This document shows, piece after piece, positions 4,393 to 27,700 of a DNA stretch of 29,382 nt. Source of the stretch: Deltaproteobacteria bacterium. GTDB lineage: Bacteria > Desulfobacterota > Syntrophia > Syntrophales > UBA5619. The notes under the pieces were generated by a model, which was not told where the DNA came from, searched no databases, and worked only from the letters and a program-made list of their open reading frames with translations. A program made the translations under genes and the position numbers. The first letter of the stretch is position 1. Every line of letters begins with the position of its first letter. Where the stretch lies: the NCBI GenBank assembly GCA_026388345.1, contig JAPLJY010000332.1, positions 1 through 29,382 on the forward strand, given 5' to 3'.

Positions 4393-5277
4393 TCAAATCG
4401 TTGGCCGCTTCAGGAGCCTTTTCGGATTGTCATGGATCATGACCCTCAATTCTTCATCTGAGAAGCCCAGCCCCCTCATCTTCCCGAGATAGAAACAGAA
4501 TCCCTCCACAGGAGGACCGTTGGACACCTGCCCGAAATCGGATGTAAGAATGACGTTTCCCACACCCATGAGACGGATCTGCTCGCCGATCCAATCCAGG
4601 GAAACAGAGCCGGGACAACTCTCAGTCACGGCAAAGAAGCAATGCTCGAGAAGCGCCCCCAACTGAACCGCCTCCTTCTGCTGCTCCAGGCTCAAGGCAG
4701 TGACGGGCTCCGAGACATGGGTGACGAGCATTCTCCTGACGCCGAAATCGACGGCGAGTTTGATCAGGGCAAGGGATTCCACGGGCGAGATGTGACCGGT
4801 GGCCATGACGGCATCATGCCCGGCGATCAGGCGCAGGATTGTCTCGCACTCTTCCCAGGGTTTTCCCTTTGCATCAAAAAGGGAAAGACCGGGATAGTCA
4901 GGGCCTGGCAGGGGGAAGGCCGTAGGAGGTTTTCCGGCGCCCCAGATTTCGATGTGATTCTTTGCGCCATAGGTTGGAAAGTAAATGACGTCGGCGCCTT
5001 CGCGCAGCGCAGACTCCACGGCGCAAGGGTTGAGTCCCCCGGCGGGGGGGTTGAGGGCCAGGGCGCTCAAGAAACGGACAGAGCCGGCCGACATCTCGTT
5101 CATCGTAAAGCATCGTCCCACGGTGGATGCGGTGTGATCCTTGATCAATAACCCCGCCATCCCGACCCGGGCCGCCGCCCTGGCCAGCTCAGGCAGGGTC
5201 TGGACCCGCGGCACCACGTCAGGGGCGGCATGGATATGGAGATCATAGGCGCCTTCCAGGAGTTTTTCAATCTTCAT
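4393..5277 (-). CDS. DUF6282-family amidohydrolase-like protein
   Basis: A 294-residue TIM-barrel-type protein of the kind annotated as DUF6282, with metal-hydrolase features: DLHIHAAPD at 12-20 (His14, His16), LLIKDHT (Lys46, His48), ATGHISP (His162), THVSEP (His187) and TSDFGQ (Asp247). This order of an HxH strand, two later histidines and a terminal Asp is that of the amidohydrolase superfamily, so a metal-dependent hydrolase or lactonase is the reasonable class call; the substrate is unknown. A good ribosome site (AGAGGTGAG) precedes the ATG. It starts 41 nt downstream of dctM, and this coupling suggests it acts on the solute the TRAP system imports. There is no signal peptide, so it should be cytoplasmic. 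Confidence 0.8.
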   Translation of the reverse strand: MKIEKLLEGAYDLHIHAAPDVVPRVQTLPELARAAARVGMAGLLIKDHTASTVGRCFTMNEMSAGSVRFLSALALNPPAGGLNPCAVESALREGADVIYFPTYGAKNHIEIWGAGKPPTAFPLPGPDYPGLSLFDAKGKPWEECETILRLIAGHDAVMATGHISPVESLALIKLAVDFGVRRMLVTHVSEPVTALSLEQQKEAVQLGALLEHCFFAVTESCPGSVSLDWIGEQIRLMGVGNVILTSDFGQVSNGPPVEGFCFYLGKMRGLGFSDEELRVMIHDNPKRLLKRPTI

Positions 5278-12918: not shown

Positions 12919-13398
12919 TTACGCCTCTTTGAGCAGCTCCACGGCGGCCCGGAGGCCCAGCAGGTAGCTCTGGACTCCGAATCCCGCGATCTGCCCCTTG
13001 GCCAGAGGCGCGATCACGGAAAAATGGCGGAACTCCTCCCGCGCGTGGATGTTGGACATGTGGACCTCCACGATGGGGACCTTGAGGATGGCCAGGGCGT
13101 CCCGCAGGCCGACGCTGTAATGGGTCCAGGCGCCGGCGTTGATGAGGACCGCGTCCACCTTGTCGAGGTGGGCCTGGTGGATCTTCTCGCAGATCGCCCC
13201 TTCGAAGTTGGTCTGGAAGGTCTCGACCTCACATCCCAGCTCTTTCCCCAACTCCACCAATTTCCGGTTGATCTCGGCGAGGGTGATTGTCCCGTACTGG
13301 GCCGGGTCCCGCTTCCCGAACATGTTCAGATTGACGCCGTGCAAAACAAGGATCTTTTTCACATTCTTCATCTTCTTCATCATTTTCTCCATCTTCAT
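12919..13398 (-). CDS. aroQ: Type II 3-dehydroquinate dehydratase
   Basis: Interconverts 3-dehydroquinate and 3-dehydroshikimate. Type II signatures are LHGVNLNMFGKRDPAQYG at 19-36 (Arg30 and Tyr35 as the catalytic pair), INAGAWTHYS at 86-95, and VEVHMSNIHAREEFRHFS at 110-127 with catalytic His113. Length (159) is standard once the Lys/Met-rich start is allowed for; Met10 is a possible true start. Departures from the commonest form are Val for Pro in HGPNLN, RDP for REP, and NAGAW for NPGAY. It follows tctA after 3 nt and its end holds the ribosome site of the molybdopterin gene, so it sits in the middle of the operon. Type II enzymes serve both biosynthesis and quinate breakdown; here the transporter context favours breakdown or a specialised use. 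Confidence 0.92.
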   Translation of the reverse strand: MKMEKMMKKMKNVKKILVLHGVNLNMFGKRDPAQYGTITLAEINRKLVELGKELGCEVETFQTNFEGAICEKIHQAHLDKVDAVLINAGAWTHYSVGLRDALAILKVPIVEVHMSNIHAREEFRHFSVIAPLAKGQIAGFGVQSYLLGLRAAVELLKEA

Positions 13399-13401
13399 CG
13401 A

Positions 13402-14901
13402 TTACGTCTTGGCCAAAGCCTTCTTGATTTTCTCCCACCAGTTATACTGACTGCCGAGCATGGCGATGGTGATGGCGATCAGCACCACCGACAGAGGGTG
13501 GGATGCGAATCCCCATAGGGCCGCCGGTACGCTATCGAGGGAATCCTGCATCGTCCTCCGGAATCCCTCCTCCATGATCGGTCCGAGGATGACGCCCAGG
13601 ATCACCGGCCCCATCTGGAAGCCATACATCTTCAGCACATACCCGAAGGTCCCGAACCCCAGCATCCAATAGACATCGCTGAGGCTGTTCTGAATGGCGT
13701 AGGTGCCGACCGTGGAGATGATGATGATGATCGGCAGCAGGAGCCCCTTGCGGACCTCCACGCATTTGGCGAAGATCTTGATCCCCGTGAGCCCCAGGGG
13801 AAGAAGGACCGTGTTGGCCAGCGTCAGGGCGCCGACCCAGAACCAGAACAGGTGCGGCGTGTCGATCATCAGCATCGGGCCGGGCTTGAGGCCGTGGATG
13901 TAGAGGGCGCCGATGAGGATGGCGGTCACGGCGTCGCCGGGGATTCCGAGGGTGAGCATCGGGATGTTGTCCCCGCCGATGCAGGCGTTGTTTGCCGTCT
14001 CGGGGGCGATGACCCCCTCGTAGGCCCCTTCACCGAAGGGCCGGGTCGGATTCTTGATGCTCCGGCGGGCACTCCCGTAGGCCATCAGGGCCGCGATGTC
14101 GCCCCCCGCCCCGGGGAGGGCGCCGATCCCGATCCCGATCAGGGACGACTTGAAGATCAGGGGGGCGTGCTTCCAGAGCAACCGCCAGGAGGGGATGATA
14201 TTCTTGACGTTCTGCTTCATCGGCTGGATATGGATGTCGTGGATCTGGATGAGGGCCTCCGAGACGCCGAAGAGGCCGATCATGATCGCCACGAAGTGGA
14301 TCCCGCTCATGAGGCCGATGCTTCCGAAGGTATACCGCCCCTGGCCGGTGAAGCTATCCATTCCGATCATGCTGAGCCAGACGCCGAGGGCGCCGGCGAA
14401 GATCCCCTTGGCCAGCGAGTCACTCGCGAGACTACCGACGAGGAGGAGCCCCATGATCGCGAGCAGGAAATAGTCCCGTGGGGCAAACATCAGCGCGTAT
14501 TCGGAGATGATCGGCGCGCAGGTCGCCAGGGCGATAATGCCGATGTACCCGCCGATGACGGAGGCGGTCGTCGACAGGCCGATCGCGATCCCCGCCTCGC
14601 CGAGCTTGGCGAGCGGATAGCCGTCGAACCCGGTGGCGACGGCTGCGGGCGCCCCCGGTATGTTCAGCAGGATCGCCGACCGGGACCCCCCGTAGACGCC
14701 GCCGCAGTAGATGCCCGCCATCAGGCAGAGGGCCTCGTTAAGATCCCAGGAAAAGGTGAAAGAGATCAGGACCGAAACGGCCATCGTGACCGACAGGCCG
14801 GGGATGGCGCCGATGTAGATCCCGCAGAAGGTCCCCACGGTGATCAGGGCGATCATTTTGAAGTTCGTAAAGGCCATGAGGAAATAACCCAGTTGTTCCA
14901 T
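13402..14901 (-). CDS. tctA: Tripartite tricarboxylate transporter large permease (TctA)
   Basis: Large membrane subunit of a TTT-family transporter driven by an ion gradient. The 499 residues form about 11-12 hydrophobic segments. Family landmarks are GIYIGAIPGLSVTMAVSVLI near residue 26, the GGVYGGSRSAILLNIPGAP stretch near 67, and SLIGIGIGALPGAGGDIAALMAYG near 255. The small-residue-rich GxxPG repeats are characteristic of TctA. A good ribosome site (GGAGAAATT) precedes the ATG, 9 nt after the tctB stop. With tctB and tctC it gives a complete transporter. The substrate is not necessarily a tricarboxylate; Bug-type receptors bind many acids. Confidence 0.95.
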   Translation of the reverse strand: MEQLGYFLMAFTNFKMIALITVGTFCGIYIGAIPGLSVTMAVSVLISFTFSWDLNEALCLMAGIYCGGVYGGSRSAILLNIPGAPAAVATGFDGYPLAKLGEAGIAIGLSTTASVIGGYIGIIALATCAPIISEYALMFAPRDYFLLAIMGLLLVGSLASDSLAKGIFAGALGVWLSMIGMDSFTGQGRYTFGSIGLMSGIHFVAIMIGLFGVSEALIQIHDIHIQPMKQNVKNIIPSWRLLWKHAPLIFKSSLIGIGIGALPGAGGDIAALMAYGSARRSIKNPTRPFGEGAYEGVIAPETANNACIGGDNIPMLTLGIPGDAVTAILIGALYIHGLKPGPMLMIDTPHLFWFWVGALTLANTVLLPLGLTGIKIFAKCVEVRKGLLLPIIIIISTVGTYAIQNSLSDVYWMLGFGTFGYVLKMYGFQMGPVILGVILGPIMEEGFRRTMQDSLDSVPAALWGFASHPLSVVLIAITIAMLGSQYNWWEKIKKALAKT

Positions 14902-14910
14902 AATTTCTCC

Positions 14911-15372
14911 TTACCACAAGACGATTCTGAAGGCATATTGAAACAGGAGCCAGACCACGGCGAGCATGATGACTCCGGTGATCAAAGCTCTTACTATTTT
15001 TGCGCCTTTCAGCAGCAGAAAGGAGCCGACGAGGAACAGATAGGAGGCCACCCAGAAATGGAGAGGATTGAGCAGCAGGATATAGAGGACCAGGACTCCG
15101 ATATAGGCGACCACCAGATAGGGAAAGGCAAAAGGCTTGGCCTGGTTGAGCTCCTCTTTCCATTGCCAGGAGGCGAAGACCTTCCTTTCCTTCCAGACGA
15201 TGCGGAGGATCGACAGGAACATGACCGCTCCGATGAAGAGCGGGAACGCCCCCATTGATGAAAAGCTGTCGTGGGGCATCTGCCATGCCACGATGAAGAC
15301 GAAAAGACTCAAAGCCAGCAGGAACCACATGAGAAAGCGTTCCCCAGGCTTGCGATCGGTATTCTCTTCCAT
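14911..15372 (-). CDS. tctB: Tripartite tricarboxylate transporter small permease (TctB)
   Basis: Small membrane subunit of the TTT transporter, 153 residues with four hydrophobic helices (FLMWFLLALSLFVFIVAW, MGAFPLFIGAVMFL, LVVAYIGVLVLYILLL, and the C-terminal ALITGVIMLAVVWLLF). The frame is open another 89 codons upstream, but that part is Arg/Pro-rich shadow sequence overlapping tctC. The ATG at 15372, preceded by AAGGAGA, is the clear start. TctB is poorly conserved in sequence, so the call rests mainly on size, topology and its place between tctC and tctA. Confidence 0.88.
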   Translation of the reverse strand: MEENTDRKPGERFLMWFLLALSLFVFIVAWQMPHDSFSSMGAFPLFIGAVMFLSILRIVWKERKVFASWQWKEELNQAKPFAFPYLVVAYIGVLVLYILLLNPLHFWVASYLFLVGSFLLLKGAKIVRALITGVIMLAVVWLLFQYAFRIVLW

Positions 15373-15394
15373 GGTGCAAATCTCCTTACATTGT

Positions 15395-15426
15395 TTCTCC
15401 GGCCGGGCGACGACCCGGCCGGAGAA
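15395..15426 (-). promoter_or_regulatory. 13-bp GC-rich intercistronic hairpin between tctC and tctB
   Basis: TTCTCCGGCCGGG (15395-15407) and its exact complement (15414-15426) flank a 6-nt loop, 20 nt after the tctC stop. It is very stable and lacks a T-tract on the minus strand. The position after the receptor gene parallels the dctP-dctQ hairpin at 7154-7196. A role in raising receptor over permease levels is inferred. Confidence 0.7.
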
Positions 15427-15445
15427 TGCACGACGATATCCGCGG

Positions 15446-16450
15446 TTACGGTTTCGGGATCCCGAATTTGTCGGGCGAAAACTTGGTCGCGCCCGCATCC
15501 TGGAGGAGCCAGGCCGTGGTCGACTGCCATTGTTTAAGGAACTTCTCGGCCTCGGCGCCGGAGATGCCCATGTAGACGGAGCCGAAATTCTTAATGAACG
15601 CCAGGGCCTTGGGATCGCTCGTGCCCTTCTTGAATGCATCCACCAGGACCTTCTTCGCCGCGTCGGGGGTCTCCTTCTTCACAAAAACACCGTAGAAGGG
15701 GCCCCAGGGGAGGAACTTCTTGTAATCGGCGGACGTGGCGGTGATCAGGGGAACGTTTTCGAGACCCGCAATCGGCACCTCGGATACCACGGCCAGGGCG
15801 CGCATGCGGCCCGCCCGGAGGTGCTCACTGCAAGCGGCCATGCCGAACGTCGACCACTGGACGTGGCCGCCCAGGATGGCCGTCGTCAGGGGGCCTTCGC
15901 CCTGGAAGACGATGTGGTTGAAGTTTACACCGCTGGTAGCCTTCATCATGGAGGAAACCACGTGGGGAAGGCCTCCCGGTCCCGTCGATCCCATTTTGAT
16001 CGTGCCGGGGCTTTTCTTGGCGGCGTCGAACAGTTCGCCGAGGGTTTTCCAGGGCTGGTCGTTGTTAACGACGACGACGCCGACGTTGCGGGCGATCAGC
16101 ATAACCGGGAAGAAGGCATCGTAGTCGATCTGGCTGATGTCCAGGACCTTGTAGATGGTGGGGTTCTCCGCCCCGTAGAGCAGGGTGTAACCGTCCGCAG
16201 GCTGATTATAAACCGACATGAGGCCGACGGCGCCCGTCGCGCCCGGCTTGTTCTGGAGAACGATCTGCTTGCCGAGTGCCATCTCGACATAGGGCGTCAT
16301 GGCCCGGGATACGTTATCCGTCGCCCCGCCGGCGCCCCACTGGATGATGCCCGAAATGTCCTTCGTCGGGAAATCCGCCGCCTGGACGGGTACCGCAAAA
16401 CCAATGATCAACAACGCGACAATGACACACAGTCCTTTCATCTTTCTCAT
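15446..16450 (-). CDS. tctC: TTT transporter periplasmic receptor (TctC/Bug family)
   Basis: Extracytoplasmic solute receptor for TctAB. A signal peptide is clear: MRKMKG, hydrophobic LCVIVALLIIGFAV, and likely cleavage after PVQA. Bug-family features in the mature part are WGAGGATDNVSRAMTPYVE, the NKPGATGAVGLMSVYN loop that contacts the bound acid, the DGYTLLYG segment and GSTGPGGLPH. I start at ATG 16450 because AGGAGG lies 7 nt upstream of it; the ATGs at 16468 and 16456 overlap or crowd that ribosome site. The 44-codon ORF upstream stops by overlap with ATG 16468, so coupling to that start remains possible. Ligand: an organic acid, not further defined. Confidence 0.93.
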   Translation of the reverse strand: MRKMKGLCVIVALLIIGFAVPVQAADFPTKDISGIIQWGAGGATDNVSRAMTPYVEMALGKQIVLQNKPGATGAVGLMSVYNQPADGYTLLYGAENPTIYKVLDISQIDYDAFFPVMLIARNVGVVVVNNDQPWKTLGELFDAAKKSPGTIKMGSTGPGGLPHVVSSMMKATSGVNFNHIVFQGEGPLTTAILGGHVQWSTFGMAACSEHLRAGRMRALAVVSEVPIAGLENVPLITATSADYKKFLPWGPFYGVFVKKETPDAAKKVLVDAFKKGTSDPKALAFIKNFGSVYMGISGAEAEKFLKQWQSTTAWLLQDAGATKFSPDKFGIPKP

Positions 16451-16464
16451 CTTCATTCCTCCTG

Positions 16465-16599
16465 TCATAAAAGTGTTTGGTGGCGCTGCATCACAAACAG
16501 CACCTTTGCGGTATCCCCCGCGTAAAACGCCTCGAACGCTCCTTCAAACCCCATCCGGGACGAATACACATGACCCATGGCCCCGATATTCGCCGTCAT
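16465..16599 (-). CDS. 44-residue ORF between the aroC homologue and tctC, possible C-terminal remnant
   Basis: ATG at 16599 has a plausible ribosome site (GAGGG, 6 nt upstream) and is followed by 44 codons ending in a TGA that overlaps an upstream tctC ATG. The product begins MTANIGAMGHVYSSRMGF and contains GAFEAFYAGDTAKVLFVM. That second stretch resembles the C-terminal end of medium-chain dehydrogenases (an EAF..aGd..KVLf pattern), so it may be what is left of a deleted oxidoreductase gene. It is equally possible that it is a real small protein. The resemblance is by eye only. Confidence 0.4.
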   Translation of the reverse strand: MTANIGAMGHVYSSRMGFEGAFEAFYAGDTAKVLFVMQRHQTLL

Positions 16600-16627: not shown

Positions 16628-17788
16628 TTATGCATCCGGCAACGATAAAATGCTCAGACCAAGCTGGGGACCTTCCATGTCATGGCGGAGCGAACGGTAC
16701 CCGTTCCACATCATCAGGAAGTCCACCAGCACCATCGCCGTCATGGCTTCGGCCACCGGCACCACCCGGGGAACGATGGTCGGGTCCCGGCGCGTCTCCG
16801 CAGCGAGTTTTTCATCGCGTTTTTGAATCACGTTGATCGTCATTTGATCGATGGAGATGGTGGAGGTCGGCTTGACGGCAATTCTAAAAACGATATCGTC
16901 CCCGTTGCTGATTCCGCCCAGCATCCCGCCGCAGCGGTTGGTGCGGAAGCGGACAGCCCCCTTCTCGTCATAGTAGGGGATATCGTTGTTTTCGCTGCCC
17001 AGCCGGCGCGCCTCTGCGAAACCGTCGCCGAACTCGATGCCCCGGACGGAACCGATGCTCGTCATGGCATGGGCCAGCACGGCCGTCAGTTTGTCGAAGA
17101 CCTGCTCGCCGAGACCAGCCGGGACCCCGCGGGCGATCACCTCGATGATCCCGCCCACGGTATCCCCATTCGCGGCAGCCTCCAGGGTCTTGGCGATCAT
17201 CCTTTCGCCGGCCTCCGGGTCGGGGCAACGGGCGATATTGGTTTCCGTATTGGCGACAATGTCGTTCCAGGTCAGGTCCGAACGGGCCGCAATTCCGGCC
17301 ATCTCTTTCGTATAACCACGCACCTCGATTCCTTCCCGGCCGAGGATCTTCTTGGCGACCGTCCCGGCGGCCACGCGACAGGCGGTCTCCCTCCCGCTGG
17401 AACGACCGGCGCCCCGCCAGTCCCGGAAACGTCCGTATTTGATATGAAAGGTGTAGTCCGCATGTCCGGGTCGCACCCGCTCCATCACCCTTGCATACTG
17501 TTTGACATGGAATGGTTCCGTATCGACGTTGTAGATGATCATGCCGACCGGTGCGCCGGTGGTGCACCCGTCGAACACGCCGGCGACAATTTGAACCTTG
17601 TCCTTTTCCTGCCGGGGCGATGTGATGGCGCTCTGGCCCGGACGCCGGCGATCGAGCTCATACTGAACTTCCGCTTCGGTGATCGGCACTCCGGGGGGAA
17701 CCCCGTCGACAATGATCTGTAAGGCCGGGCCGTACGATTCACCCGCGGCCGTAACGCGGAAAACTCTTCCGAAGGTATTCCCCTGCAT
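16628..17788 (-). CDS. aroC: Chorismate synthase homologue with altered active site
   Basis: Chorismate synthase removes phosphate from EPSP using reduced FMN. The 386-residue homologue keeps the fold-defining stretches: RRRPGQS (48-53), DGCTTGAP, GHADYT (108-113, with the second catalytic His as His109), GRSSGRETACRVAAG (128-142), FGDGFAEA, and GGMLGGISNGDD. It departs at key places. The near-invariant GESHG is GESYG (Tyr19 for the first catalytic His), the Arg after RPGxS is Ala54, and the C-terminal RHDP is RRDP (333-336). I checked the Tyr codon (TAC) in the DNA. It lies 104 nt downstream of the aroA homologue and upstream of the TTT genes. It may be a slow true AroC or an enzyme acting on an EPSP-like analogue. 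Confidence 0.88.
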   Translation of the reverse strand: MQGNTFGRVFRVTAAGESYGPALQIIVDGVPPGVPITEAEVQYELDRRRPGQSAITSPRQEKDKVQIVAGVFDGCTTGAPVGMIIYNVDTEPFHVKQYARVMERVRPGHADYTFHIKYGRFRDWRGAGRSSGRETACRVAAGTVAKKILGREGIEVRGYTKEMAGIAARSDLTWNDIVANTETNIARCPDPEAGERMIAKTLEAAANGDTVGGIIEVIARGVPAGLGEQVFDKLTAVLAHAMTSIGSVRGIEFGDGFAEARRLGSENNDIPYYDEKGAVRFRTNRCGGMLGGISNGDDIVFRIAVKPTSTISIDQMTINVIQKRDEKLAAETRRDPTIVPRVVPVAEAMTAMVLVDFLMMWNGYRSLRHDMEGPQLGLSILSLPDA

Positions 17789-17891
17789 ACCCCTCCTCTT
17801 CTTTCATGCCATTTATGGAAAGGATCGTGTTCCCGGGGCAACGAATCATGGAGACGCGACAAAAATATCGCGGTCCGTATCCTCCCGTATG

Positions 17892-19160
17892 CTACTGCCT
17901 GTTAATCTTCCCCCCGAGACCCTGGATCAATTCCAGGAAGTTCGGCACCGTAACCTCAACCGCCTCCGCGGTGTCCACCTCCGTCCGGCCGGGGATGGCC
18001 AGACCGGCAACGGACAGGGACATCACGACACGATGGTCGCCATACCCCCGGACAGGGCAGCCCTTGAGCCTGCTTTCATGGATGATCATTCCATCGGGGA
18101 GTTCCTCCACCCGGGCGCCGAGGCGCCCCAGTTCCTTCGCCATGACCGATATCCGGTCTGTCTCCTTGAGCCGTGCATTGGCCACGTTGCGCAGAACGGT
18201 CTTCCCCCTCGCAAAGCATCCGACCACGGCCATCGCCGGAAGTGCATCCGGGGTGTCGGCCATGTCGATCTCGATGCCCTGCAGCGATCCTTGCCGTACA
18301 CGGACGCCCCCGTTTTCAAAACGGATATCCGCCCCCATTTCCTGGAGATAGGTGACGACCTTTTTGTCACCCTGGACATCGTCCATGTCCAACCCGTGAA
18401 GCGTGATGTCCGCATCGCACAACGCACCGGCAATCAGGAAAAAGGTCGCGGATGAAAAATCGCCGGGAATGGTCACCTCCTGTCCATGATAGGACTGCCC
18501 CCCGAAGAGTTTGAAGCGGGTCAGATCTTCCGAGGCTTCATAGCGGATCCCCTGACGGTCCAGCCATTTCAGCGTGATTTGGACATAGGATTTCTCGTGA
18601 ACATCGTAAACCTCAAACTCGGAATCACGCTCGATCAGCGGACAATGGATCAAAAGGCTCGAAACGTACTGGGAGATGATCCCCCTGAGCCGCGTTCTGC
18701 CTCCCTTGAGACGCCCCTTGACCACGACCGGGGGAAGACCGTTGTTGCGGGTCGAATAGACCTCCGCCCCCAGACCATTCAATGCGCCGATCAGCGGTTG
18801 GACCGGCCGCCGGACGATCTGACGGTCGCCGCTCAGCACGGTCGTCCCCTCCACCAGACTTGCCGTTCCCATGCAGAAATTCATCGTGGTCCCGGAGTTT
18901 GCAACATCGATGATATTTTCAGGCACATGGGGAAAGCCGCCCACCCCTTCCACCGTCCAGGAGCCGCCCAGATCGATCCTGGCCCCAAACATACCGGCCG
19001 CCCTGGCCGCCGCAAGACAATCGCCGGATTCCAAGGGATGGTGAATGATCGAGCTACCATGCGCAAGGCCGGCGATGGTCACCGCCCGGATGGTGTGCGA
19101 CTTGCTTGACGGAATCAGGACATCGCCCCGGAGAGTCGATTTCTCGCTGATCATTCTCAT
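17892..19160 (-). CDS. aroA: EPSP synthase (AroA) homologue with altered substrate-site residues
   Basis: AroA transfers the enolpyruvyl group of PEP to shikimate 3-phosphate. The 422-residue protein spans both inside-out domains and keeps Lys20/Arg25 (SSKSHTIRA), Arg118 (RRP), SQ at 163-164, GDFSSA (233-238), Asp304, KETDR (332-336) and DHR (375-377). Against the E. coli enzyme three conserved residues differ: Asn94 for Arg100 of NAGTxxR, Glu189 for Ser197, which binds S3P phosphate, and Val403 for PEP-site Lys411. The PGSKS motif reads PSSKS. These changes suggest altered or weaker S3P/PEP handling. Start ATG has GGAAAG 6 nt upstream; stop is TAG. It follows the ketopantoate-reductase-like gene after 77 nt and precedes the aroC homologue. 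Confidence 0.88.
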   Translation of the reverse strand: MRMISEKSTLRGDVLIPSSKSHTIRAVTIAGLAHGSSIIHHPLESGDCLAAARAAGMFGARIDLGGSWTVEGVGGFPHVPENIIDVANSGTTMNFCMGTASLVEGTTVLSGDRQIVRRPVQPLIGALNGLGAEVYSTRNNGLPPVVVKGRLKGGRTRLRGIISQYVSSLLIHCPLIERDSEFEVYDVHEKSYVQITLKWLDRQGIRYEASEDLTRFKLFGGQSYHGQEVTIPGDFSSATFFLIAGALCDADITLHGLDMDDVQGDKKVVTYLQEMGADIRFENGGVRVRQGSLQGIEIDMADTPDALPAMAVVGCFARGKTVLRNVANARLKETDRISVMAKELGRLGARVEELPDGMIIHESRLKGCPVRGYGDHRVVMSLSVAGLAIPGRTEVDTAEAVEVTVPNFLELIQGLGGKINRQ

Positions 19161-19237: not shown

Positions 19238-20179
19238 CTACGCTTTCTTTGCGTAATGCGTCATCCGGTATTCAATTCCCTTGATACCGGCCACCAACGT
19301 CTTGTTGACGGGCGTCGGAACCTTACACTTCTCCCCGTATCGGACGACCGCTCCATTGATGAAATCGATCTCGGTTCTCAAACCTTTCTCCAAACTTTGC
19401 AAGAGGGAGGGTTTGAAATCCTCGGGCAACCCTTCGGACGCTTTGACCCATGCTTCCATGGGGTCCTTCGTAGACAACTTTACACCGATTGCCTTTGCAA
19501 CCGCGATTCCCTCCGATACCGCTGCGAGTGCGCAATCCATGAGTTCCGGCATTGTGTAGAGCCCGCCATAAGGCAGTCCTGTGATGCCGCACAGCGCGCC
19601 GGTGGCAACGTTGACCAGCAACTTATCCCACATGATCCCGATGATATTGGAGCTCACAGTAATCAACAGGCCGGCCCGCTTGAACTCCTCGGCGATCCGG
19701 GTCACCCTTTCCGTGGTCGTGCCGTCGAGCTCTCCAATATAGGTGTGCTTGCCCGTGGTGTTGGCAATCACATGCCCGGGGGCAAGTACCGAGCCGCCGG
19801 CAAATGTTCTCCCGCCCAGCACATGCCCCCTCCCAGCAACCTCCCCGATGATCTCCTCGTTGCCGAGACCGTTCTGGAGAGACATAATTACCGTTTTGTC
19901 CCCGATGATCGGACCGGCATTTTCAATAGCCTCCCTCGTGTTAAAGGACTTCACCAGAACGATGATGAGGTCTGCCGGCCCTATCCCCCGGCAGTCCGTT
20001 GCTGCCCGGACCTTGACCACTCGATCGGACGAGCCTACCCTGAGCCTCAGCCCCCGGCTGTTGATCGAATCGACGTGCTCCGCCCAGGTATCCAGCAGAT
20101 AAACGTCCGATCCACCGGCCGCCAGCAACCCGCCGATCGAGCTGCCCATTGCCCCGGCACCCAGAACGCAGATCTTCAT
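19238..20179 (-). CDS. Ketopantoate reductase-family protein (PanE/ApbA-like)
   Basis: NADP-dependent reductase of 2-keto acids; the reference member makes pantoate for CoA. The 313-residue protein has the Rossmann motif GAGAMG (7-12) and residues matching the reference catalytic set: Lys77 in VKSFNT, Asn103 in LQNGLGNEE, and Lys186 and Asn190 in WDKLLVNVATGAL. TEIDFING appears near the C-terminus, followed by VPTPVNKTLVAGIKGIE, a typical ending. It starts 15 nt after the MDR gene upstream. Many PanE paralogues in catabolic clusters act on other branched or hydroxylated keto acids, so panE itself is not assigned here. Stop is TAG. Confidence 0.88.
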   Translation of the reverse strand: MKICVLGAGAMGSSIGGLLAAGGSDVYLLDTWAEHVDSINSRGLRLRVGSSDRVVKVRAATDCRGIGPADLIIVLVKSFNTREAIENAGPIIGDKTVIMSLQNGLGNEEIIGEVAGRGHVLGGRTFAGGSVLAPGHVIANTTGKHTYIGELDGTTTERVTRIAEEFKRAGLLITVSSNIIGIMWDKLLVNVATGALCGITGLPYGGLYTMPELMDCALAAVSEGIAVAKAIGVKLSTKDPMEAWVKASEGLPEDFKPSLLQSLEKGLRTEIDFINGAVVRYGEKCKVPTPVNKTLVAGIKGIEYRMTHYAKKA

Positions 20180-26006: not shown

Positions 26007-26420
26007 CTATTGCTTCGTGATTTCAACCATGCCCCGATCGGCGTCGACTTTGACCCAGTCTCCGGTAGAAATCACCTCCGTGGGATCCTGATCAAACTCG
26101 GTCACCGCCGGTACGCGCGCAACCACGGCGCCCAGGGCTGTTTGGGGATTACTCTCTTTGGTCACATAGGCTTTTGGAGAGACGCCCGTAAAGCGCAGGG
26201 CCTGATGGGCAATCGACCAAGCCGACGATCCCTTGGCCGTTCTGAACACGAGGATCTTTCCCGCCACACTTTTCCCGTACCAATCATGGCCGTAATCGAT
26301 CACATCCCCCGTGTCGAAATCGAAACAGCCAAAACCTCCCAGTGACTCCTTCGTAACGAGCGCCTCGCCCTCCGCTGAACCCCCGTTTATTTTTCTACCC
26401 CGCAGGACGATTTTGCTCAT
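26007..26420 (-). CDS. Aconitase X small (swivel, DUF126) subunit
   Basis: The 137-residue swivel domain of aconitase X, here a separate polypeptide. Visible family features are LRGRKINGGSAEGEALVT at the start, GGFGCFDFDTG (about 28-38), the GKILVFRTAKGSSAWS loop whose Ser-rich turn closes over the substrate, and VTEFDQDP. The ATG at 26420 forms an ATGA overlap with the stop of the large subunit gene, so the pair is translationally coupled and must function together. The stop is TAG. Confidence 0.9.
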   Translation of the reverse strand: MSKIVLRGRKINGGSAEGEALVTKESLGGFGCFDFDTGDVIDYGHDWYGKSVAGKILVFRTAKGSSAWSIAHQALRFTGVSPKAYVTKESNPQTALGAVVARVPAVTEFDQDPTEVISTGDWVKVDADRGMVEITKQ

Positions 26421-27700
26421 TTCAGTTCTCCTCTCCACTTCCCGGTCAGGGCAGCCTGGATGCACTCTTCCGTTGTGCCAAACCAGGTGTTTTTTGACCC
26501 GGTCTCCCCGGGAAGGTAATTCGCCATCTTGGCAGAATCACAGGCAAAGACCGTTGAAGGATCGACAGCGAGGACAAGCCCGCAGGCATCTTCCCACACC
26601 GAACCGCCGGCCTGGGTGATCGTCTCCGTATATCCCTGCTTGTCCGCCGTGTTCTTGATCGGGTGGCAGGTCGTGACATAGAGACGGGTATTCTGATTGA
26701 TCTTCTTGCCTTCCAGCATCCCGGCAATCGTCCGCAAACGGTCCAAACCGGCATGGGGACAGCCCAGCACCACAATGTCCACGTCATCCCTGTCGGAATG
26801 ATTCAGCTTTTCATAGGCGATCCTGCGTTCCTCCCGGCCAAATTTCATTATCCTTAGATTTTTCCCGTTTCCGCTTGCTGCTTCAAGGGTCGGGGCATCG
26901 AGCGTGATTCCGATAATGTGAAACTTGACGATGCTTCCCGAGGCAATGCCGGCGGCGCACAGCCCCATCAGACGGGGCAGGTCCGGTACCCGGTTGATGT
27001 GGGTGTAAATGGGGATATCGAGTCCAACCTGGCTTCCGACATAATATCCCATCAGATACCAGTCCCGGAGAAGCTCCATATCGACTTCGACGTCGACAAT
27101 GACCTTGCCGAAACGGTTCTCATCAAGATGCATTCCCCACAGGGGAGTCTTCCCGGTGACCGCCGATGCAAAGGAGCTGTGCAGCCCTTCGATGTTGGTA
27201 TAGGCACCGAGCACAGAGTTACAGAAGGCGACCGCCGACGATTCCGTCCAGGCGCAGTGCTCCCCTTTCATCGGAATATTTCCAACCTGATAGGGGGTGC
27301 AGGTGGCCAGGTGGATGACGCCCACTCTTTTGAGATAATCCGCCATCTTCTGGAGGAGATCGCAGTGGGACTTTCCCCCTCTCTGGAGTTCGGGGTATCT
27401 CTGGTCCCTGAAGGTGGCATTCGTCGTCGTGAAGGCCTTTACCCGATCCAGAACGACCCTCTCATCGCTGTCGAGGAGAAATCTGGAGGCGATCTCATCG
27501 GCGTCCAGGGAGGGAACAACCCTTTCGACGATCTTGATATCGGGGATGGAGCCGACGATGATGGTTGCGTTATTCGTATCGACAAAGCGGTCGGCACCCA
27601 GCCCCTCGGCGTATTTCACGAGCAGCGTCATCGCCTTCTGTCTCGCCGAGCCCTCCTTGCCTTCCAGCATCTCCTGTTCGTTTCGAGCTAACCTCATCAT
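26417..27700 (-). CDS. Aconitase X catalytic (DUF521) subunit
   Basis: Iron-sulfur dehydratase of the aconitase superfamily, 427 residues. Candidate cluster cysteines are Cys134 (LATCTPYQVG), Cys314 (VLGCPHAG) and Cys387 (VFACDSAKMANY). The substrate-site stretch GEHCAWTESSAVAF is at 147-159, followed by SVLGAYTNIEG. Known AcnX enzymes dehydrate cis-3-hydroxy-L-proline in bacteria or mevalonate 5-phosphate in archaea. None of the usual hydroxyproline genes (proline racemase-like, pyrroline-carboxylate reductase) is nearby, so another hydroxy acid is likely here. The separate large and small subunits resemble the archaeal arrangement. GAGGGT is closer to ideal spacing for the second ATG (27697). 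Confidence 0.9.
   Translation of the reverse strand: MMRLARNEQEMLEGKEGSARQKAMTLLVKYAEGLGADRFVDTNNATIIVGSIPDIKIVERVVPSLDADEIASRFLLDSDERVVLDRVKAFTTTNATFRDQRYPELQRGGKSHCDLLQKMADYLKRVGVIHLATCTPYQVGNIPMKGEHCAWTESSAVAFCNSVLGAYTNIEGLHSSFASAVTGKTPLWGMHLDENRFGKVIVDVEVDMELLRDWYLMGYYVGSQVGLDIPIYTHINRVPDLPRLMGLCAAGIASGSIVKFHIIGITLDAPTLEAASGNGKNLRIMKFGREERRIAYEKLNHSDRDDVDIVVLGCPHAGLDRLRTIAGMLEGKKINQNTRLYVTTCHPIKNTADKQGYTETITQAGGSVWEDACGLVLAVDPSTVFACDSAKMANYLPGETGSKNTWFGTTEECIQAALTGKWRGELK

What the first reader, a model, noticed from the sequence alone, without database searches (positions are those of the whole stretch)
16628..19160. Neighbouring AroA and AroC homologues both lack family-defining active-site residues
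Seen: the chorismate-synthase homologue has GESYG instead of GESHG (Tyr19), Ala54 where an Arg normally follows RPGxS, and RRDP instead of RHDP. The EPSP-synthase homologue has Asn94 for the Arg of NxGTxxR, Glu189 for the S3P-phosphate Ser and Val403 for the PEP-site Lys. Known: the first AroC His (His17 in Neurospora, His10 in Streptococcus) and AroA Lys411 and Ser197 (E. coli numbering) take part in catalysis or binding. Inference: two consecutive enzymes changing at substrate-contacting sites, inside a transporter and dehydrogenase island, points to a paralogous pathway on a shikimate-phosphate analogue, possibly an enolpyruvyl-cyclitol route not yet described.
Basis: partly seen in the sequence, partly recalled or inferred. 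Interest (0 to 1): 0.75.

Follow-up and report, generated by a model that had tools for sequence, protein, structure and literature searches.

The report
Altered enzyme pair without shikimate kinase
The two odd enzymes belong to a widespread variant pair that seems to make chorismate, the parent of the aromatic amino acids, in microbes that mostly have no recognisable shikimate kinase, which hints at an undescribed shortcut in a textbook pathway.

Summary
The substitutions are real and not chance. All 121 AroA rows (window plus the 120 best hits) have Glu at the Ser197 site; AroC has Tyr19 in 118 of 121, with 3 gaps. Tyr-type AroC and Glu-type AroA are single groups in trees and mostly travel together. 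Ala54 and Asn94 are not diagnostic. An extra cyclitol pathway is only partly supported: in 16 genomes (11 Armatimonadota, 3 of a 'Deltaproteobacteria' phylum, one Auribacterota, one archaeon) the Tyr-type is the only AroC, AroA is Glu-type, and chorismate-using enzymes are present in all 16. There the pair must make chorismate. A shikimate kinase (PF01202) beyond a short P-loop piece is missing in 13 of 15 bacterial ones, against 0 of 40 controls with His-type AroC; the archaeal kinase is below cut-off in all 16. Both key changes sit where the 3-phosphate is normally held or expelled. I read the pair as bypassing shikimate kinase; an unrecognised kinase is the main rival. The window's own genome is not held, and its subclade is a sister of the tested one.

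The parts
17892..19160 (-). AroA homologue, 'E-type' EPSP synthase: Glu189 at the E. coli Ser197 site, Val403 at the Lys411 site, Ile162 at the Ser169 site
   Evidence: E-type is one side of a branch, 100/100, 37 of 45 rows; model pLDDT 95.9, TM 0.95 to 1g6s
16628..17788 (-). AroC homologue, 'Y-type' chorismate synthase: Tyr19 for the first active-site His, Arg334 for the His of RHDP, GAG for GGG at 126-128
   Evidence: Y-type is one side of a branch, 100/100, 30 of 57 rows; model pLDDT 87.8 but residues 126-130 below 50, TM 0.82 to 1qxo
12919..13398 (-). AroQ homologue, type II 3-dehydroquinate dehydratase, same strand; shares NAGAWTHYS with PDB 6cv6
19238..20179 (-). ketopantoate-reductase-like dehydrogenase (TIGR00745, 235 against cut-off 141 bits) directly upstream of aroA; 5 contig lengths are shared between its best homologues and those of AroA, an indirect sign of kept linkage
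13402..16468 (-). tripartite tricarboxylate transporter genes (TctA, TctB, TctC like), named by reading the ORFs, between aroQ and aroC
   Evidence: names recalled, no family scan

Best explanation
The pair is a variant EPSP synthase plus chorismate synthase that makes chorismate and removes the need for shikimate kinase. Proposed steps: shikimate, not shikimate 3-phosphate, binds the E-type AroA, with Glu189 meeting the free 3-OH where Ser197 would hold phosphate; AroA adds the enolpyruvyl group to O5; the Y-type AroC, with FMN, then makes the 1,4-elimination with a leaving group other than phosphate, most simply water helped by Tyr19 and Arg334. Shown by computation: the substitutions and their two groups, the linkage, sole AroC status in 16 genomes, chorismate-using enzymes there, and absence of both known kinase families in most of them. 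Inferred: the substrate, the leaving group, and that the window's own pair, in a sister subclade, works the same way.
For: Position 19 is only Tyr or His in 260 AroCs, and the Tyr rows form one group; this residue lies near the EPSP phosphate and may protonate the leaving group (passage in PMC7144000). Glu is at the Ser197 site in 121 of 121 AroA rows, window and best hits, a 3-phosphate contact (recalled; PMC8983318 section 8, says only that the central domain binds the S3P phosphate). Y-type is the sole AroC in 16 genomes, with an E-type AroA in 16 of 16, adjacent in 15 of 16. PF01202: 11 of 15 bacterial ones have no match and 2 only a short P-loop piece of a cytidylate-kinase-like gene; 40 of 40 His-type controls have a kinase, one cut by a contig end. 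Fisher p 7e-11 to 1e-8 according to how pieces are counted. TIGR01920 is over cut-off in 0 of 16. The 2 exceptions (L132, L212) have GGS for GGG and lack the RP lid motif. PF00425 is present in 16 of 16. Among the neighbours that I read I saw no third gene shared across phyla.
Against: E-type AroA also occurs with His-type AroC: adjacent in L031 (Nitrospinae), and in one operon in L026 (Legionellales, Lys411 kept); whether those genomes hold a kinase was not tested. In Ruminiclostridium and Anaerobacterium the pair's operon carries a shikimate-kinase-like gene, and a more usual kinase exists elsewhere. The arginine array of AroC is kept, as if a third anion were still bound. Ser169 and Ser170 are kept in the kinase-less L100, L102, L141. 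Loss of hydroxide is chemically harder than loss of phosphate. The counted genomes are probably mostly incomplete MAGs, related to one another, and of the sister subclade only. 14 of 16 have weak matches to TIGR01920 below its cut-off.
Confidence: 0.48

Rival explanations
1. Unrecognised kinase: the pathway still runs through shikimate 3-phosphate, made by a kinase of another family or a diverged P-loop kinase; the AroA and AroC changes are tolerated or compensated features of an old clade.
For: E-type AroA beside His-type AroC in L031 and L026; SK-like genes in the operons of L004/L005 and in G001, G406; AroC arginines kept; weak GHMP-kinase matches below cut-off in 14 of 16 genomes; kinase replacement is known in archaea (GHMP type; PMC3018139, passages).
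Against: No shikimate kinase of either known family, by my counting, in 14 of 16 Y-only genomes; no kinase gene seen beside the pair outside Clostridia in the loci read; both key changes sit at phosphate-contact sites.
Confidence: 0.32
2. One reading: a second, specialised pathway on a shikimate analogue, tied to the transporter and dehydrogenase island, beside ordinary aro genes elsewhere in the genome.
For: Window neighbours are AroQ, TTT and TRAP transporters (by reading), two alcohol and two Gfo/Idh dehydrogenases, an isomerase and AcnX; the PanE-like neighbour shares 5 contig lengths with AroA homologues; the subclade is a sister of the tested one; in Anaerobacterium a second, ordinary aroA lies beside tyrA and a DAHP synthase (by reading).
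Against: The sister subclade holds the sole AroC in 16 genomes that use chorismate; catalytic and carboxylate-binding residues are kept; a transporter neighbourhood does not prove function.
Confidence: 0.15
3. Ordinary housekeeping EPSP and chorismate synthases with neutral drift at those sites.
For: Family cut-offs passed and sole AroC in relatives.
Against: A single switch of the active-site residue on a branch of 0.47 changes per column with no other residue seen there, and the link to kinase loss.
Confidence: 0.05

Closest known systems
EPSP synthase (AroA, EC 2.5.1.19; TIGR01356, PF00275; PDB 1g6s)
   Same: Same fold (TM 0.95 to 1g6s), curated cut-off passed, PEP and shikimate-ring residues mostly kept
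   Different: Ser197 is Glu, Ser169 is Ile, Lys411 is Val, Arg100 is Asn
Chorismate synthase (AroC, EC 4.2.3.5; TIGR00033, PF01264; PDB 1qxo, 7rca)
   Same: Same fold (TM 0.82), cut-off passed, second His, Asp and arginines kept
   Different: First active-site His is Tyr, His of RHDP is Arg, GGG is GAG
Archaeal shikimate pathway with GHMP shikimate kinase (TIGR01920)
   Same: Another case in which AroK is missing and chorismate is still made
   Different: The GHMP kinase is not over the cut-off in any of the 16 genomes

Membership tests
EPSP synthase (AroA) | score over curated TIGR01356 cut-off | tested here: met
   410.1 against 287.25 bits
EPSP synthase (AroA) | Lys22, Arg27, Arg124, Asp313, Glu341, Arg344, Arg386 (E. 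coli) | tested here: met
   all kept in the window
EPSP synthase (AroA) | Ser197 and Lys411, 3-phosphate and PEP contacts (roles recalled) | tested here: not met
   Glu189 and Val403
Chorismate synthase (AroC) | score over curated TIGR00033 cut-off | tested here: met
   403.4 against 212.2 bits
Chorismate synthase (AroC) | first active-site His (His17 Neurospora) | tested here: not met
   Tyr19; of 80 loci of a genome scan 75 have His, and 260 AroCs have only His or Tyr
Chorismate synthase (AroC) | second His (RPGHAD) and Asp of RHDP (numbering recalled) | tested here: met
   H109 and D335
Canonical chorismate pathway | shikimate kinase in the same genome | tested here: not met
   relatives only: 13 of 15 bacterial Y-only genomes lack PF01202 beyond a short P-loop piece; own genome not held
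Canonical chorismate pathway | chorismate-consuming enzyme in the same genome | tested here: met
   relatives only: PF00425 in 16 of 16
Canonical chorismate pathway | activity on S3P and EPSP | not testable with these tools
   needs assay
   not so for AroC in 16 relatives; both kinds in Anaerobacterium; window genome not held

The most novel reading that the evidence does not exclude
A two-gene cassette, E-type AroA plus Y-type AroC, has spread between phyla and domains and replaces three steps of the textbook route: shikimate is turned into 5-enolpyruvylshikimate and then chorismate with no 3-phosphate at all, saving one ATP per ring, and genomes that gained it lost shikimate kinase.
Probability: 0.38. 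Interest if true: 0.92.

Novelty: new variant of a known kind. Interest (0 to 1): 0.76.

Why it matters
The shikimate pathway is taught as seven fixed steps and is a target of herbicides and drug design. A branch without shikimate kinase would change genome annotation and auxotrophy predictions for uncultured lineages. It offers a natural test of what chorismate synthase needs as a leaving group. Missing shikimate kinases noted in a 2010 survey (PMC3018139, passages read) would have a concrete candidate explanation in part of the tree.

Tried and rejected
Own genome: none held. Phylum sample of 395 genomes around G007 for close relatives of the window's AroC: best identity 55%, so the window's subclade was not reached. 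Rejected as diagnostic: Ala54 and Asn94. Considered and rejected: chance or sequencing error (same residues across the best 120 hits), pseudogenes (intact frames, confident models). Paper searches for a kinase-less route (open-access library only, listings seen) gave one relevant paper, PMC3018139. Read: passages of PMC7144000 and PMC3018139; passages and one section of PMC8983318.

Counts and dropped rows. Left out of the 15: G216 (mixed: a Y-type AroC, a His-type AroC fused to a kinase, and fragments), G004 and G005 (a second AroC each), and G002 (archaeon, in the 16 but not the 15). G376 counts as one AroC although its gene is split over two contigs. G078 counts as Y-only although two further N-terminal AroC pieces exist; both are Y-type. 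G003 and G502 have PF01202 matches that just pass the Pfam cut-off (22.6 and 22.8 against 22.1 bits) but cover 23 and 30 positions in cytidylate-kinase-like genes; I count them as lacking. Of the 40 controls, 26 are all the His-type loci read, and 14 are a choice from the 19 His-type loci listed. One, G473, holds a kinase cut off by its contig end (66 positions), and G474 a weak one (87 bits). If G473 is counted as lacking, p is 1e-9; if only genomes with no match at all are counted (11 of 15 against 0 of 40), p is 1e-8. AroA copy number was counted in 6 of the 16. Three AroA loci (L044, L093, L177) were left out of the AroA tree. The Tyr/His and Glu/Ser groups are defined by the residue itself, so '137' and '118' are group sizes, not tests; and the trees are the tests.

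Full report
What is there. The window encodes on its minus strand an AroA homologue (17892-19160) and an AroC homologue (16628-17788). Both pass curated family cut-offs. Against PDB relatives the AroC has GESYG for GESHG and RRDP for RHDP. The AroA has Glu189, Val403, Asn94 and also Ile162 at the E. coli positions Ser197, Lys411, Arg100 and Ser169. AlphaFold models have the normal folds: AroA mean pLDDT 95.9, TM 0.95 to 1g6s; AroC 87.8, TM 0.82 to 1qxo, with the stretch 126-130 of low confidence.

More than chance. Among the window and its 120 best hits, AroC 19 is Tyr in 118 with 3 gaps, and AroA 189 is Glu in 121 of 121 (only the best 120 of many hits are listed). I then aligned 261 AroC sequences: the window, 142 from fetched loci after removing near-identical ones, and 118 from the protein search that were over 350 aa. 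Position 19 is Tyr in 137, His in 123 and a gap in one; no other residue occurs. Position 334 is Arg in 127 of the 137 and His in 121 of the 123. In 128 AroA sequences, 118 have Glu at the Ser197 site; all 118 keep R124, S170, D313, K340, E341, R344, H385 and R386, and the Lys411 site is Val 105, Ile 8, Ala 4, Lys 1. These groups are defined by the residue, so the test is the tree: in 57 AroC rows the 30 Tyr rows, and in 45 AroA rows the 37 Glu rows, are each one side of a branch with 100/100 support and in 100% of bootstrap trees.

Where else. The best protein hits reach Armatimonadota and Bacillota by their names. A genome scan gave 80 loci, of which five are Tyr-type: an Armatimonadetes MAG (L001), a Syntrophoarchaeum MAG (L002), an Auribacterota MAG (L003), Anaerobacterium chartisolvens (L004) and Ruminiclostridium papyrosolvens C7 (L005). 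In 395 genomes of the phylum of a 'Deltaproteobacteria' MAG (probably Desulfobacterota; the tool does not name it), 4 of the 30 best-scoring loci that I read were Tyr-type: G078, G216, G301, G376. In 121 genomes of the Armatimonadota sample the AroC scores are bimodal: 11 genomes at 626-695 bits and the rest at 444 or less, 9 of them without a match.

Sole copies. G001, G002, G003 and G301 have exactly one AroC; G376 has one, split over two contigs; G078 has one whole and two short N-terminal pieces, both Tyr-type. All 11 Armatimonadota with Tyr-type have exactly one AroC match. That makes 16 genomes, G001 being in both sets. In the six where I counted, the Glu-type AroA is the only one over the TIGR01356 cut-off. 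All 16 have a Glu-type AroA, adjacent to AroC in all but the archaeon. By reading the ORFs, the pair lies beside a DHQ dehydratase/shikimate dehydrogenase fusion in G078, G301 and G376, beside a shikimate dehydrogenase in L003 and near AroB in G502 and G406. A chorismate-binding enzyme (PF00425) scores 309-332 bits in each of the 16. So in these organisms the pair makes chorismate.

The missing kinase. PF01202, the shikimate kinase family, was searched in six frames. Of the 15 bacterial genomes among the 16, two have a full-length match, G001 and G406; G003 and G502 have only P-loop pieces of 23-30 positions in cytidylate-kinase-like genes, just over the Pfam cut-off; 11 have nothing. Among controls with His-type AroC, 26 of 26 in the first phylum sample and 14 of 14 in Armatimonadota have a kinase, one of them (G473) cut off by a contig end. 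Fisher's test gives 7e-11 to 1e-8 depending on how pieces are counted; kinship between genomes makes this optimistic. The two exceptions have GGS for GGG and lack the RP lid motif. The archaeal GHMP shikimate kinase (TIGR01920) is over the cut-off in 0 of 16; 14 of 16 have weak matches (best 54 bits; 47 in the archaeon; cut-off 127), which other GHMP kinases can give; over the cut-off it rings in 4 of the 14 control genomes.

How it may work. The first His of AroC lies near the phosphate of EPSP and could help to protonate the leaving group (a passage in PMC7144000). Ser197 of AroA contacts the 3-phosphate of S3P (recalled; the section read in PMC8983318 says only that the central domain binds that phosphate). 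So the two fixed changes sit on the same group of the substrate in two consecutive enzymes, and the enzyme that would put the phosphate there is missing. The simplest joint reading is that the phosphate is not used. Then AroA-E takes shikimate, and AroC-Y eliminates the free 3-OH or some other group. This mechanism is inferred. The shared lack of a kinase in several phyla, with no shared third gene seen among the neighbours that I read, fits a cassette that is enough by itself.

Against it. E-type AroA also pairs with His-type AroC: in L031 the two genes are adjacent, and in L026 they share an operon with DAHP synthase, AroB and a prephenate-dehydratase-like gene. I could not search those genomes for a kinase. 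If they have one, E-type AroA can use S3P. In the two Clostridia the operon holds a shikimate-kinase-like gene (FM or FL for FR, lid motif lost) and a more usual kinase lies elsewhere. AroC keeps its arginines. Hence I keep an unrecognised kinase as a strong rival.

The window itself. Its AroC falls in a subclade of 11 rows that is a sister of the 18 rows holding all 13 genome loci of Y-type that were in the tree, one further row (P0222) standing apart with weak support. Its genome is not held. Its neighbours are AroQ, transporters, dehydrogenases and AcnX. Contig-length coincidences suggest that the ketopantoate-reductase-like gene next to aroA is kept in relatives (5 lengths shared between 106 and 74), and AroA and AroC lists share 4 lengths. 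A specialised role for this subclade is therefore not excluded.

Known or new. Both proteins are members of their families by profile and fold, but each fails residues that the family normally keeps. I found no description of a kinase-less route or of this residue pair in the paper searches made, which cover open-access papers only. A 2010 survey noted missing shikimate kinases, mainly in archaea, and suggested unknown replacements (PMC3018139, passages).

Noticed in passing
L165 (6 to 10.2 kb) and L166 (6.8 to 11.1 kb): In Ruminiclostridium papyrosolvens and Anaerobacterium a very divergent His-type AroC (GRV for GRE after the GGRSSGR region) is followed by a membrane protein, an adenylate-forming-ligase-like gene (by reading) and a shikimate kinase: it looks like a small specialised cluster.
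   Followed up: partly
G424, G438, G449, G467, G477, G484, G504, G510: Eight Armatimonadota genomes have an AroC whose profile match is split in two within one open frame, as if an insertion of about 20-60 residues sat in mid-protein; a further AroC variant.
   Followed up: no
window 12919-13398: The AroQ has NAGAWTHYS where the next PDB relative has NPAALTHTS; its best PDB match, 6cv6, shares this motif. It may be a specialised subgroup next to TTT transporters.
   Followed up: partly
window 26007-27700: Aconitase X small and large subunits as two overlapping genes beside a TRAP transporter (by reading), a TIM-barrel isomerase and two Gfo/Idh dehydrogenases: probably a catabolic island.
   Followed up: no
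window 4393-5277: A DUF6282 protein of unknown function next to TRAP transporter genes (by reading).
   Followed up: no
L026 6545-11663: Legionellales operon aroA (Glu at the Ser197 site, Lys411 kept), DAHP synthase, aroB, His-type aroC, prephenate-dehydratase-like gene (names by reading): a possible early branch of the E-type AroA group.
   Followed up: partly
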